In this document: positions 21,795-26,835 of the stretch, in pieces
Layout of the letters: the number at the start of each line of letters is the position of its first letter
Position numbering within the stretch: the first letter of the stretch is position 1
Program-made: the position numbers and the translations under genes
DNA from: Microvenator marinus
GTDB lineage: Bacteria > Myxococcota_A > Bradymonadia > Bradymonadales > Bradymonadaceae
Reading direction: 5' to 3'
Assembly: GCF_007993755.1 (NCBI RefSeq)
Contig: NZ_CP042467.1
Coordinates: 372,001-436,000, forward strand
Length of the DNA stretch: 64,000 bases
The notes under the pieces: generated by a model
Database searches by the model: none
Told to the model about the DNA's origin: nothing
What the model saw: the letters and a program-made list of their open reading frames with translations, nothing else

Positions 21795-22721
21795 ATGAGT
21801 TTATTAGTGGTTGGTTCCGTGGCGTTTGACTCTGTAAAAACGCCGTTCGGGGATGTCGAAGATGTGTTGGGCGGCTCAGCCTTATATTTTTCGACCTCAG
21901 CAAGCTATTTTACCGATGTAAGTCTAGTGGCCGTTGTCGGCGATGACTTTCCAGAGGAACCGGTAGAGTTTCTGAAGTCTCGCAAGGTTGACGTCAAGGG
22001 CCTTCACCGGGCCGAGGGGAAGACCTTTAGGTGGAAGGGTGAATACGGCTTCGATCTCAATGAGGCTCATACGTTGGACACACAGCTCAATGTATTCAGC
22101 GACTTTAAACCAGAGCTTTCCGATGCTCAGAAGGATGCGAAGTTCATCTTCTTGGCGAATATCGACCCTGAACTGCAACTCGAAGTCTTGAATCAGGTAC
22201 GAAACCCTGAGTTCGTCGCATGCGATACGATGAATTTCTGGATCAATGGCAAGCCCGCCGAGCTTCGGCGTACCCTTGAGCGTGTCAATATGCTCGTTAT
22301 CAACGAGTCTGAGGCGCGAGCGTTGGCCGGCGAATCCAATATCGTGAAGGCAGCACAGGCGATTCGAGCTATGGGCCCCCAATACCTCGTGGTTAAACGA
22401 GGTGAGTATGGTGCGCTCGTGTTCTCGGACAAGGAGACATTCTTCGCCCCCGCTTATCCGTTGGAATCTGTCTACGACCCAACTGGCGCTGGAGACACCT
22501 TTGCGGGCGGGTTGATGGGTTATATTGCCAGCCGTGGCCGTGTGGATGACGAGACACTTCGCTTAGGAACCGTGATCGGTTGCGTGATGGCGAGTTTTGA
22601 CGTGGAGCAGTTCAGTTTTGATGCGCTTCGCGACCTGAAAGCGGCTCAGATTTTGGAACGATTTAAACGTTTCCATTCTCTTGTGAATTTTGAGACCCTG
22701 ACGGAGCTACCGGCGCGTTGA
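21795..22721 (+). CDS. PfkB/ribokinase-family sugar kinase
   Basis: The 308-residue protein has the N-terminal glycine-rich GGSALYFSTSASYF region, the central NESEARAL motif, and the C-terminal DPTGAGDTFAGGLMGY anion-hole and catalytic-base signature. It phosphorylates a sugar or nucleoside; the substrate is not readable. It sits 38 nt before the lipoprotein that leads the vertex-protein/aldolase cluster, so a role in making a phosphosugar for that aldolase is possible but unproven. Confidence 0.9.
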   Translation: MSLLVVGSVAFDSVKTPFGDVEDVLGGSALYFSTSASYFTDVSLVAVVGDDFPEEPVEFLKSRKVDVKGLHRAEGKTFRWKGEYGFDLNEAHTLDTQLNVFSDFKPELSDAQKDAKFIFLANIDPELQLEVLNQVRNPEFVACDTMNFWINGKPAELRRTLERVNMLVINESEARALAGESNIVKAAQAIRAMGPQYLVVKRGEYGALVFSDKETFFAPAYPLESVYDPTGAGDTFAGGLMGYIASRGRVDDETLRLGTVIGCVMASFDVEQFSFDALRDLKAAQILERFKRFHSLVNFETLTELPAR

Positions 22722-22758
22722 CGTCCGGTCCTAACCTGCAATTTGTTTGGAGACGAAA

Positions 22759-23565
22759 ATGAAGAAGCTTTGTTTGGTTGCTGCCCTGGCGCTGATGATT
22801 GGGTGTGGAGAGGATGAGAGCCCTTCGAATAACGCCAACAACACGTCATCGAACAACGGTCAGACCACTGAAACCAACAACTCGACTACCAATAACGGCG
22901 ACTCAGGGGTTGATAACAGCGGCATTACCTATCAAGACTCTTATCAACTCATCTTCGACACGATGGCCTTCGACGAAGATTCGCTCGCCAAGAGTCTGAA
23001 TGGGCTTCTTGCGCAAAACTTCGACCAAAGCCTTGAGTTTCCGATCATCGTATTGGTGGACCTGAAGTCCATCGACCCAGACGGTGGGACTCTAGAAATC
23101 CGAGGTGGTTCTGGCCTAAAGACAGAGACCGACGGCGAGTATATCTGGGATCCGGAAGGCGACGATTCCTATGACGCTGGGACCCTAGGCTCAGCAAATG
23201 GCCGCGTGGAAGGCGTGCTTCAGACGCTCAACTTTGTGGCAACTTTAGTCACAGAAACGGGAACCACAAAAATGCCAATTCCGATTCGTCAGCTGGAGTT
23301 CTCTGGCAACATGCAACTCAGCGAAGACGGAAGTACCGGAAGCATTGCCAATGGGCGTATGTCTGGCTATCTGACCAAGGAGGATGGCGACGCAGCACAA
23401 GTTGTTATTGTCCCTGGGGGGACGCCGATTTCGATTACGGACCTGTTCAAAGAGGATAAGCTCAACTACGATTCCGCTTCAGGTGAGTTAGTGGCGGCAG
23501 GTGAGGGCGATTCGTGGTTGCTCAATGCCAGCTTTACAGCCAAACCAGTGGTGATTGTGGAGTAA
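22759..23565 (+). CDS. Hypothetical lipoprotein with Asn/Ser/Thr-rich linker
   Basis: The ATG at 22759 gives MKKLCLVAALALMIGC, a clear lipobox (Cys 16). A linker of about 35 residues rich in Asn, Ser and Thr follows, then a 210-residue mostly beta domain (SIDPDGGTLEIRGGSGLKTE). GGAG lies upstream. No family is recognised. It ends 2 nt before the first vertex-protein gene, so it is cotranscribed with the microcompartment-like genes although it should be outside the cytoplasm. Confidence 0.8.
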   Translation: MKKLCLVAALALMIGCGEDESPSNNANNTSSNNGQTTETNNSTTNNGDSGVDNSGITYQDSYQLIFDTMAFDEDSLAKSLNGLLAQNFDQSLEFPIIVLVDLKSIDPDGGTLEIRGGSGLKTETDGEYIWDPEGDDSYDAGTLGSANGRVEGVLQTLNFVATLVTETGTTKMPIPIRQLEFSGNMQLSEDGSTGSIANGRMSGYLTKEDGDAAQVVIVPGGTPISITDLFKEDKLNYDSASGELVAAGEGDSWLLNASFTAKPVVIVE

Positions 23566-23567
23566 AC

Positions 23568-23861
23568 ATGAAGTTGGGCCGAGTGATCGGGACAGTAGTC
23601 TCGTCTACAATTTATGCCGGTTTGGATGGGATTAGGTTTCTGGTCGTCCAGCCTTTGAACTCCAAGTTGGAAAATGACGGCCCCGACATGGTCATGGCTG
23701 ATACGGTTCAATCGGGACCTGGCGATATCATCTTTTGGGTTGGAAGTCGGGAAGCAGCTTTGGGCATGCCCGAAACGTTCGTCCCGGTTGATGCCGCGAT
23801 CGTTGGTCATGTGGACCGAGTCGGGCCCGTGGATGCCACGCCCGCCTATGAGGAGCGCTAA
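23568..23861 (+). CDS. EutN/CcmL-family microcompartment vertex protein (BMC-P), first copy
   Basis: The 97-residue protein matches the pentameric vertex family: MKLGRVIGTVVSST, then LVVQPLN, and VQSGPGDIIFWVGSREA in the place of the family's GAGvGexVL-GsxAR loop, ending in a strand VDAAIVGHVDRV. Such proteins cap the corners of bacterial microcompartment shells. The loop is altered (PGDII instead of xGExVL), so whether it still forms vertices is uncertain. It lies between the lipoprotein and a second EutN-like gene; no hexameric BMC shell gene is visible. Confidence 0.85.
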   Translation: MKLGRVIGTVVSSTIYAGLDGIRFLVVQPLNSKLENDGPDMVMADTVQSGPGDIIFWVGSREAALGMPETFVPVDAAIVGHVDRVGPVDATPAYEER

Positions 23862-23863
23862 GT

Positions 23864-24130
23864 ATGAAACTCGCCCGAGTCTTGGAACCCGTAGTTTCAA
23901 CTGTGAAGCATCCAGCCTACGAAGGCCTGACGCTTTATTGTGTGGCGGAGCTCGATGATAAGCTCGAAGAAACAGGCAAGGAACTCGTGGTAGTCGACCG
24001 CGTGCAGGCGGGGCCGGGTGATGTTGTTTTGGTGATGCAAGAGGGCAATGGTGTGCGGCAACTCTTCAAGCAAGAGCGCTTTCCTATTCGCTCCATCATC
24101 GTTGGAATTGTGGATACGGTGGACAAATAG
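23864..24130 (+). CDS. EutN/CcmL-family microcompartment vertex protein (BMC-P), second copy
   Basis: The 88-residue protein has the same plan as its neighbour: MKLARVLEPVVSTVKH, LYCVAELDDK, VQAGPGDVVLVMQEGNGVR, and a final IIVGIVDTVDK strand. The two differ enough not to be a recent duplication. The start is 2 nt after the previous stop and its stop directly abuts the aldolase ATG, so the module is one operon. Two vertex paralogues next to an aldolase recall PVM/Haliangium-type microcompartment loci, which carry several BMC-P genes. Confidence 0.87.
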   Translation: MKLARVLEPVVSTVKHPAYEGLTLYCVAELDDKLEETGKELVVVDRVQAGPGDVVLVMQEGNGVRQLFKQERFPIRSIIVGIVDTVDK

Positions 24131-24841
24131 ATGCCAGGTGTAAGGGATTCTAGAGAGTCGATTCTCCATTATTCGCAACTGATTTATCAGAAGGGGTGGG
24201 TGGCCAATCACGAAGGCAACCTGACGTGCAGGCTTGGAACCGAGCGGTTTCTCAGCACGCCCACTGCCTTTTCAAAGGCGGATATCGCCGAGCGCGACCT
24301 GATTGAGATCGACCGCGACCGTACCGTTCTACGCGGATTTCGAAGACCTTTCTCTGAGTTCCAGCTCCATCGAGCCATTTACGATACGCGTCCCGACGTC
24401 AACGCGGTCATCCACGCACATCCACTCAATGCGACCGCGTTCTCGGTTCTTGGCCGCGGTTTAGACCGAGCGATCATTGCGGAGTCGGTGGTCAGCATTG
24501 GCCCAGGTATTCCGTGTGTACCGTTCGCGATGCCCGGTAGCGCAGAAGAGCGAGACATCGTCTCTCGTTTTGCCACGCGTTACGATGTCCTGATCTTGGG
24601 GAACCACGGGGTAATTGCGTTTGGAGACGACCTTGAACAGGCCTTTTTGAGGCTCGAATATTGCGAGCACCTAGCTCAGATCGAACGGATGGCCATGAGT
24701 ATGGGCAGCGTTCGCTATCTTGGCTGGCGCGATGTGGAAGTCCTCTTAGACCGAAGAAAGGCTGCAGGACTAGGCCCTGAGGCTCGTGGAATGAGTCGTG
24801 AAGAGGCCTACGGACTTGCGAGGAAGTACTACGAGTTGTGA
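24131..24841 (+). CDS. Class II aldolase (L-fuculose-phosphate aldolase-like)
   Basis: The 236-residue protein has the expected metal and catalytic residues: Glu in PFSEFQLH, the HAHP zinc ligands, and the third His in ILGNHGVIA. Family members cleave 1-phosphate ketoses such as fuculose-1-P or rhamnulose-1-P into DHAP and an aldehyde. Such aldolases are core enzymes of fucose/rhamnose microcompartments in other phyla. The C-terminus extends about 20 residues beyond the typical fold, with a helical tail (SREEAYGLARKYYEL) that could be an encapsulation-type helix; this is inference. Confidence 0.9.
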   Translation: MPGVRDSRESILHYSQLIYQKGWVANHEGNLTCRLGTERFLSTPTAFSKADIAERDLIEIDRDRTVLRGFRRPFSEFQLHRAIYDTRPDVNAVIHAHPLNATAFSVLGRGLDRAIIAESVVSIGPGIPCVPFAMPGSAEERDIVSRFATRYDVLILGNHGVIAFGDDLEQAFLRLEYCEHLAQIERMAMSMGSVRYLGWRDVEVLLDRRKAAGLGPEARGMSREEAYGLARKYYEL

Positions 24842-26835
24842 AACTTCTGCTCGTTTCAGTTTTGCTCCTCTTGTCGTACTCGTGTTCCGATCCCGAGACG
24901 AATCCAACAAATCCAGCATTTCGACTTTGTGAAGTTAGCGAAGACTGCCGCGTTTCGGAGGTTTGTATCGTAGGGCGGTGTGTGCTCCAGAGCATAGACC
25001 CGGAAACTGACATGGGTGCGCCGGATCTCTCTCAGGACATCGGTGTCGACCTTCCTGAAGATATGGCGCCGTTGGATACGGACTCAGACGGCGTTCTGGA
25101 TGGGGACGATAACTGCCCCGAAGTCTCAAATCCTTCCCAACTCGATACAGACTTGGATGGTGTCGGAGACGCTTGTGATAACTGCCCCGACATCGCAAAT
25201 GCTAGCCAGACTGACAGGGATTTGGACCAGATCGGGGACGCCTGTGACGAGTGCCCGTCGATTCCAGGTAGCGGGAATGAATGCAACGACACAACGCGCG
25301 ATTCCGACGGGGATGGAATTCCAGATGTGAGGGATGTTTGTCCGGTGGACTTTGATCCCCTGCAAATCGATACCGATGGCGACGGAGTAGGGGACCTTTG
25401 TGATAATTGTCCCTCTGCTTCCAACGCAAGTCAGGTGGACCGCAACCAGAACGGAAGGGGGGACCACTGTGAGCGCCGTGAGGGGCTTCCCGTTGCGTCC
25501 CCGCTATTGGACAGCGATTCAGACGGATGGATCGATGCGATTGACCCATGCCCAGGAACTCCACAGGACACCCTGGTGGACTCGGATGGAGATGGCCTTG
25601 GAGACGCTTGCGACCCTTGTCCGACCATTTCCGGTGACGCAAACGGTGCCTGTGCCTTCCAAGGCGATGCTGATGGGGATGGTGTTCCGAATGCCGTGGA
25701 TAACTGTCCTGCCGTGTTTAATCCCGGGCAGCTTGACTGGGATGGTGACAAGATTGGAGACCTGTGTTCGGAGGCTGCCTGGAGATTGGATCGCGATGGA
25801 GATGGCACCATCGATATGTTGGACAATTGTCCGTTTGTAGCGAATCAGTCTCAATTGGACGATGATTTTGATGGGGTTGGCAATGCGTGTGAGTACCCGA
25901 ACGAAGATGTAGACGGTGATGGAATTTCAAACTCAGTGGATAACTGTCCGTGGCGACAAAATCCGATGCAAGAAGACTTGGATGGCGACGGTTTGGGTGA
26001 TATCTGCGATCCCTGCCCATTCCATAGTGTTGTGACTGAGCCCAGTGCCGGCCTCCCGGCCGCTTGTGCACTGGACTTCGATAACGATCTCGTGCCGGAC
26101 TCCGTGGATAATTGCCGCTTTGTGCCGAACTCTGACCAGGTAGACTCTGATGCAGACGGAATCGGTGACGCGTGCGCGACCTCGGATGACACCATCAAAG
26201 GTGGGGATGAAGACAATGATGGCGTGTTGGATGCTGACGATAATTGTGTGCGTGTTTCAAATCCTGAGCAGCTAGACTCGGACTCAGACGGGGTAGGAGA
26301 TGCGTGTGATGTGTGTCCGGGCTTGGTCGATCCGTGGAATCTTTTATCCGCAAGCGGCGGCATCTGTGCATTTGATCTAGATGGCGATGGAATTCCTGAC
26401 TCGCGAGACAATTGTCCTGATGTCCACAACCCCTATCAGTCCGATCTAGACGGCGATGGAACCGGTGATTTTTGTGATCCGTGTCCCATGGTCGCTGACG
26501 CATTGAGGGCAACGCCTGACGATGATAGTGCATGTCGCGCGGATTTTGACGGAGATGGTGTTTCGGACGCCACCGACAATTGTCCAACGGCGCCAAATCC
26601 GGACCAGAGAGATTCCAACCTGAATGGTATTGGAGATCGATGCGAGAATGACCGGGATGGTGATGGCGTCTTGGACGTGTTTGACAATTGTCCGGGAACG
26701 CCCAATCCCGACCAGCTCGATTCCGATTCAGATGGTGTTGGAGACGTGTGTTCTCGGGACCGAGATCGAGATGGAATCGACGACCGATTGGATCCGTGCC
26801 CAGACCTTCATCTTCTTTTCGGATGTGACACTTAG
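24838..26835 (+). CDS. Thrombospondin type-3 repeat lipoprotein (Ca2+-binding)
   Basis: The start is GTG at 24838, overlapping the aldolase stop (GTGA) and giving MKLLLVSVLLLLSYSC, a lipobox with Cys at 16. The rest is tandem thrombospondin-3 repeats of the form DSDGDGxGDxCDNCPxxxNPxQ from about residue 80 to the end, with some units interrupted. Each repeat supplies Asp ligands for Ca2+ and paired Cys for disulfides. No OmpA or enzyme domain follows, so it is a pure repeat rod on the outer membrane. It overlaps the convergent gene by 4 nt. Confidence 0.92.
   Translation: MKLLLVSVLLLLSYSCSDPETNPTNPAFRLCEVSEDCRVSEVCIVGRCVLQSIDPETDMGAPDLSQDIGVDLPEDMAPLDTDSDGVLDGDDNCPEVSNPSQLDTDLDGVGDACDNCPDIANASQTDRDLDQIGDACDECPSIPGSGNECNDTTRDSDGDGIPDVRDVCPVDFDPLQIDTDGDGVGDLCDNCPSASNASQVDRNQNGRGDHCERREGLPVASPLLDSDSDGWIDAIDPCPGTPQDTLVDSDGDGLGDACDPCPTISGDANGACAFQGDADGDGVPNAVDNCPAVFNPGQLDWDGDKIGDLCSEAAWRLDRDGDGTIDMLDNCPFVANQSQLDDDFDGVGNACEYPNEDVDGDGISNSVDNCPWRQNPMQEDLDGDGLGDICDPCPFHSVVTEPSAGLPAACALDFDNDLVPDSVDNCRFVPNSDQVDSDADGIGDACATSDDTIKGGDEDNDGVLDADDNCVRVSNPEQLDSDSDGVGDACDVCPGLVDPWNLLSASGGICAFDLDGDGIPDSRDNCPDVHNPYQSDLDGDGTGDFCDPCPMVADALRATPDDDSACRADFDGDGVSDATDNCPTAPNPDQRDSNLNGIGDRCENDRDGDGVLDVFDNCPGTPNPDQLDSDSDGVGDVCSRDRDRDGIDDRLDPCPDLHLLFGCDT
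25078..26822 (+). repeat. Tandem thrombospondin-3 coding repeats
   Basis: Roughly 20 units of about 36-75 nt sharing the core that encodes DGDGxGDxCDxCP recur through the lipoprotein gene. Spacing and codon use vary, so this is a degenerate protein repeat and not a recent tandem duplication. It accounts for the many long antisense open frames here. Confidence 0.85.

What the first reader, a model, noticed from the sequence alone, without database searches (positions are those of the whole stretch)
21795..24841. Vertex-protein pair plus class II aldolase with no visible hexameric shell gene
Seen: two EutN/CcmL-like genes (23568, 23864) abutting a class II aldolase, all in one operon with a lipoprotein, and a PfkB sugar kinase just upstream. 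Knowledge: BMC-P pentamers normally close shells made of BMC-H hexamers; PVM-type and Haliangium compartments carry several BMC-P and often a fucose/rhamnose aldolase. Inference: a satellite locus of a microcompartment, or a shell-free use of the pentamers with the aldolase. The altered loop (GPGD in place of the usual glycine-glutamate motif) in both suggests divergence.
Basis: partly seen in the sequence, partly recalled or inferred. Interest (0 to 1): 0.7.

Follow-up and report, generated by a model that had tools for sequence, protein, structure and literature searches.

The report
Satellite genes of Haliangium-type microcompartment
Two genes for the corner pieces of a bacterial protein organelle sit next to an aldolase gene in a small outlying cluster, while the rest of the organelle is encoded elsewhere in the same genome, an arrangement already described for Haliangium-type microcompartments.

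Summary
In detail: two BMC-P (EutN/CcmL, PF03319) genes abut a class II aldolase (PF00596), and the window holds no BMC-H. The hexamer is not missing. The same chromosome carries a main locus about 31 kb upstream (BMC-Tdp, BMC-H, BMC-P, acylating aldehyde dehydrogenase, BMC-Ts) and, far away, an EutB/EutC/EutL module. This matches the published 'type I HO' (Haliangium ochraceum-type) layout: a satellite of two BMC-P plus aldolase, with an optional EUT-module satellite (Sutter et al. 2021, PMC8217296). The pair and aldolase recur as a detached module in about 20 further loci, mostly Myxococcota. The three BMC-P form three paralogous groups (the 'BMC-P triplet'). In the host's order, BMC-P and the BMC aldehyde dehydrogenase occur in exactly the same 7 of 26 genomes. 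GPGD is the commonest loop form in both groups, so it is not a sign of divergence. The PfkB kinase and lipoprotein are lineage-specific neighbours. Less expected: this aldolase lacks the C-terminal encapsulation peptide of many homologues, and HO-type aldolases have replaced a fuculose-aldolase phosphate-binding serine by phenylalanine, so the fucose/rhamnose idea is weak. New member of a known kind.

The parts
23568..23861 (+). BMC-P vertex protein 'a', first satellite member of the BMC-P triplet
   Evidence: PF03319 6.8e-22; best solved relative 4i7a GrpN pentamer; model matches pentamer chains, Foldseek E 8.6e-9, although pLDDT is only 72; groups with 54 other 'a' copies
23864..24130 (+). 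BMC-P vertex protein 'b', second satellite member of the BMC-P triplet
   Evidence: PF03319 2.9e-24; model pLDDT 87, Foldseek E 2.3e-8 to 4i7a, also 5v74 HO shell; groups with all 54 other 'b' copies
24131..24841 (+). class II aldolase, HO-type satellite aldolase, without a recognisable C-terminal encapsulation peptide
   Evidence: PF00596 1.6e-42; closest solved relatives FucA; adjacent to the BMC-P pair in about 20 detached loci; tail analysis; catalytic Glu76, His95, His97, His159 present
22759..23565 (+). lipoprotein-like gene just upstream; local neighbour, probably not part of the microcompartment
   Evidence: no Pfam hit; conserved at this place only in the close relative L011
21795..22721 (+). 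PfkB-family sugar kinase upstream; lineage-specific neighbour, role uncertain
   Evidence: PF00294 8.3e-28; no NCBIfam equivalog cut-off reached; conserved next to the pair only in L011

Best explanation
The locus is the satellite of a type I HO (Haliangium ochraceum-type) metabolosome. The two BMC-P proteins would form pentamers that, with a third BMC-P from the main locus, cap the twelve vertices of a shell. The facets would be built from the BMC-H, BMC-Tdp and BMC-Ts encoded about 31 kb upstream. Inside, enzymes that release an aldehyde feed the acylating aldehyde dehydrogenase (aldehyde + CoA + NAD+ to acyl-CoA). The aldehyde sources would be the satellite class II aldolase, and ethanolamine ammonia-lyase EutBC entering with EutL. 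Acyl-CoA could leave to the order-wide PduL/acetate kinase fusion or to central metabolism. Shown: gene content, homology, co-occurrence, conserved adjacency, pentamer-type fold by model. Inferred: co-assembly, encapsulation, aldehyde chemistry, substrate identity.
For: Main locus in own genome: BMC-Tdp (best solved match HO-5816 of 5v74, 319 bits), BMC-H, BMC-P (best match the HO shell BMC-P in 5v74, 105 bits), AldDh (PRK15398, 634 bits over a 403 cut-off), BMC-Ts. EutB, EutC and EutL module elsewhere. Literature describes exactly this: type I HO satellites with two BMC-P and an aldolase, HO satellites resembling EUT modules, and a BMC-P triplet in all HO loci. Pa-Pb-aldolase is a detached module in about 20 loci, and is inside the main locus in L031, L033 and L043. 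Three paralogous BMC-P groups. Order-wide co-occurrence of BMC-P and AldDh 7/7 versus 0/19, Fisher p 1.5e-6; EutB only in BMC-positive genomes, p 0.002. AldDh N-terminus is a short amphipathic helix plus linker.
Against: The window's aldolase has only a 21-residue tail without the linker-plus-helix seen in many homologues, so its encapsulation is not supported by an encapsulation peptide. EutA was not found as a full gene: only a 31-bit match over 50 of 475 positions, although published EUT modules list EutA/B/C. No BMC-dedicated phosphotransacylase was found: the only PduL is fused to acetate kinase, and PduL is present in 23 of 26 genomes whether or not they carry a BMC. No assembly, expression or activity data exist here.
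Confidence: 0.93

Rival explanations
1. Shell-free use of the pentamers: the two BMC-P proteins act with the aldolase as a stand-alone complex or scaffold, outside any compartment.
For: The pair is physically separate from the BMC-H genes and in one operon-like array with the aldolase. The aldolase lacks an obvious encapsulation peptide here.
Against: Complete shell locus in the same genome. In the order no genome has BMC-P without the BMC AldDh. In other phyla the same two paralogues sit inside the main shell locus.
Confidence: 0.03
2. A PVM-type fucose/rhamnose compartment in which PfkB phosphorylates the sugar and the class II aldolase splits it to lactaldehyde and dihydroxyacetone phosphate.
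For: Closest solved relatives of the aldolase are L-fuculose-phosphate aldolases; a PfkB kinase lies upstream.
Against: Best solved matches of the main-locus BMC-P and BMC-Tdp are HO shell proteins. PfkB is absent next to the pair in nearly all homologous loci. FucA phosphate-site residue Ser71 is Phe in all 28 HO-type copies, Gly44 is Ala or Ser, and in 14 copies the third metal-ligand His is Asn. No NCBIfam FucA or RhaD equivalog cut-off was reached.
Confidence: 0.07
3. A variant of the best explanation: the compartment is primarily an ethanolamine-utilising metabolosome and the aldolase satellite is a secondary or decaying attachment.
For: EutB, EutC and EutL present in own genome and two close relatives with high identity; many HO-type aldolases have lost the third metal-ligand His.
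Against: EutB is missing from 3 of the 7 BMC-positive genomes in the order, which keep the AldDh, though some of these assemblies are incomplete. The pair plus aldolase is far more widespread. The window's aldolase keeps all four catalytic residues.
Confidence: 0.2

Closest known systems
HO BMC, type I (Haliangium ochraceum-type; Sutter et al. 2021, PMC8217296)
   Same: Main locus with BMC-H, BMC-Tdp, BMC-Ts, BMC-P and AldDh; satellite with two BMC-P and an aldolase; EUT-module-like satellite; BMC-P triplet
   Different: The aldolase tail lacks a recognisable encapsulation peptide; no clear EutA; PfkB and a lipoprotein gene precede the satellite in this lineage
HO BMC, type II
   Same: Same BMC-P pair and aldolase families
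   Different: There they lie in the main locus; here they are about 31 kb away from it
PVM and PVM-like BMCs (fucose/rhamnose)
   Same: Class II (PF00596) aldolase, several BMC-P
   Different: Shell proteins closest to HO among solved structures; aldolase phosphate-site residues changed; no lactate/malate-dehydrogenase-type or DeoR gene seen in the main locus or satellite
ACI BMC of Acidobacteria
   Same: BMC-P triplet and PF00596 aldolase, AldDh in a different locus from the aldolase
   Different: There the aldolase has a C-terminal encapsulation peptide and a hydroxyacid dehydrogenase partner; none found here beside the pair

Membership tests
HO-type BMC, type I | BMC-P triplet: three paralogues from three different groups | tested here: met
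   Three PF03319 genes in the genome, one in each of three groups; supports 98 (with one stray row), 82 and 92. The published grey/orange clade names were not assigned.
HO-type BMC, type I | Two BMC-P plus aldolase in a satellite locus | tested here: met
   window 23568-24841; recurs detached in about 20 loci
HO-type BMC, type I | Main locus with BMC-H, BMC-P and AldDh | tested here: met
   L009 9096-12389, contig 361096-364389
HO-type BMC, type I | BMC-Tdp of the HO kind | tested here: met
   Best solved match HO-5816, 1.2e-94
HO-type BMC, type I | AldDh close to those of SPU5/SPU7 | not tested
   Identified as PRK15398 subfamily only; no reference tree was built
HO-type BMC, type I | EUT-module satellite EutA/B/C + EutL (optional) | tested here: inconclusive
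   EutB, EutC and EutL found; EutA only as a 31-bit partial match
HO-type BMC, type I | Shell assembles from these proteins | not testable with these tools
   Monomer models show the pentamer-subunit fold only
PVM-type BMC | Fuculose/rhamnulose-phosphate aldolase activity | tested here: inconclusive
   Catalytic Glu and three His kept, phosphate-site Ser71 and Gly44 replaced; activity not testable
Encapsulated cargo (aldolase) | Linker plus amphipathic helix at a terminus | tested here: not met
   21-residue tail without linker; many homologues have 34-67-residue tails ending in an LIRxELxxAL-like helix

The most novel reading that the evidence does not exclude
The HO-type satellite aldolase is not a fuculose- or rhamnulose-phosphate aldolase but a subfamily with an altered phosphate site (Ser71 to Phe) acting on a different substrate, and in this lineage it works without an encapsulation peptide, either outside the shell or held by the adjacent BMC-P pair.
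Probability: 0.3. Interest if true: 0.4.

Novelty: new member of a known kind. Interest (0 to 1): 0.18.

Why it matters
It adds a single-contig genome example of a type I HO microcompartment with all three pieces (main locus, BMC-P/aldolase satellite, EUT module). The function of HO compartments is still called enigmatic in the literature (PMC8217296). The altered aldolase phosphate site and the missing encapsulation peptide are concrete, testable hints about that open question.

Tried and rejected
Considered and rejected: a BMC without hexamers (BMC-H found); a divergent non-pentameric pair (both models match pentamer chains); GPGD as an unusual motif (commonest form in both groups); PfkB as a conserved partner (only in L011); a BMC-dedicated PduL (PduL is order-wide and here fused to acetate kinase); a DeoC with EP-like extension as in some HO genomes (the strong PF01791 hit lies in a 364-aa ORF that I take from its length and sequence to be a class I fructose-bisphosphate aldolase; the second hit is weak and was not examined). 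No Rfam RNA in the main or EUT loci. The search for papers naming the Haliangium gene tags gave one paper that was not useful.

Full report
Observation. The window encodes, on the + strand, PfkB (21795-22721), a lipoprotein-like protein (to 23565), two BMC-P proteins (23568-23861 and 23864-24130) and a class II aldolase (24131-24841). Pfam confirms PF00294, PF03319 twice and PF00596, with E-values between about 1e-21 and 1e-42. Gaps from the lipoprotein to the aldolase are 0-2 bases, so they are probably co-transcribed (inference; the promoter scan was empty). The window itself has no PF00936 gene.

Where the hexamers are. A search of the window's own genome (5.85 Mb, one contig, window = 372001-436000) found PF00936 domains at 361.5-364.0 kb and at 5.679 Mb, and a third PF03319 gene at 362.1 kb. 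The cluster at 361096-364389 reads BMC-Tdp (CcmP-like), BMC-H (EutM-like), BMC-P, acylating aldehyde dehydrogenase, BMC-Ts (PduT-like). The best solved relatives of its BMC-P and BMC-Tdp are the Haliangium ochraceum shell proteins of 5v74. At 5.676-5.679 Mb lie EutB, EutC and EutL. So 'no visible hexameric shell gene' is a window-edge effect: the main locus ends about 31 kb before the pair, just outside the window.

Known arrangement. Sutter et al. 2021 (PMC8217296) state that type I HO BMCs have a satellite locus with two BMC-P and an aldolase, which in type II HO BMCs are in the main locus; that some HO satellites resemble EUT modules with EutA/B/C and EutL; and that all HO loci encode the BMC-P triplet. 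Axen et al. [quoted passage not shown] ochraceum. The genome here has that pattern.

Comparative evidence. Of 55 related loci from other genomes, about 20, mostly labelled Myxococcota, Myxococcales or Deltaproteobacteria, have Pa-Pb-aldolase with no other shell gene in the fetched flanks (flanks differ in length). Loci of Bdellovibrionales and some others have Pa-Pb within a full shell locus, several with the aldolase. In G009 the main locus is on the same contig, about 50 kb away. A tree of 143 BMC-P sequences splits into three groups corresponding to P1, Pa and Pb (supports 92, 98 and 82; one stray row), with few columns, so fine branching is unresolved. In 26 genomes of the order, BMC-P matches occur in 7 and the BMC AldDh in exactly the same 7; EutB occurs in 4 of these 7 and in none of the other 19 (Fisher p 1.5e-6 and 0.002). 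Genomes of one order are related, so these p-values overstate independence. In two of the seven (G005, G022) only a weaker, P1-like match was found, so their satellite may be missing or unassembled.

Structure. AlphaFold models of Pb (pLDDT 87) and Pa (pLDDT 72, C-terminus low) match pentameric shell proteins (4i7a, EutN, CcmL, 5v74) with Foldseek E down to about 1e-8. Only monomers were modelled. The GPGD loop is the most frequent form in both groups.

Aldolase. Alignment to FucA (1dzw) and to the related loci places Glu76, His95, His97 and His159 at FucA Glu73, His92, His94 and His155, all kept. FucA's phosphate-site Ser71 is Phe in 28 of 32 aligned copies; judging from the alignment the four with Ser are L038, L054, L060 and L064, which lie outside the HO satellite group (inferred from alignment and neighbourhood). 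In 14 copies the third metal-ligand His is Asn, but not in the window. Residue roles in FucA are from established knowledge, not tested here. The tail is 21 residues, against 34-67 with a linker and amphipathic helix in many homologues; L011 and L012 are also short. The AldDh N-terminus does look like an encapsulation peptide.

Mechanism. Most likely the satellite supplies two of three vertex proteins and an aldehyde-forming enzyme to an HO-type metabolosome whose core is the acylating AldDh; the EUT module would let it also use ethanolamine. This is inference from gene content and literature. The only PduL found in the genome is an acetate kinase-PduL fusion, and PduL is shared by nearly the whole order irrespective of BMC, so CoA recycling would be by general metabolism.

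Verdict. Real, and an ordinary new member of a known kind.

Noticed in passing
L067:292-2121 (own genome, contig about 3312.7-3314.5 kb): A 609-aa fusion of acetate kinase and PduL-type phosphotransacylase; PduL matches in open frames of about 600-700 aa occur in most of the 26 genomes of the order, whether or not they carry a microcompartment.
   Followed up: partly
L015, L016, L017, L018, L021, L023, L031, L033, L043 and others: In 14 of 32 aligned aldolases the third metal-ligand histidine (NHG motif) is asparagine (GNG), suggesting altered metal binding or loss of activity.
   Followed up: partly
window 24838-26835; L011 11035; L102 17129 (G006): A 665-aa protein with 13 thrombospondin type 3 repeats overlaps the aldolase stop by 4 bases; TSP3-like matches also follow the aldolase in L011 and in G006.
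   Followed up: no
L102 11369 (G006): In the relative G006 a BMC-Tdp gene lies about 6 kb from the BMC-P/aldolase satellite, a second Tdp beside the one in its main locus.
   Followed up: no
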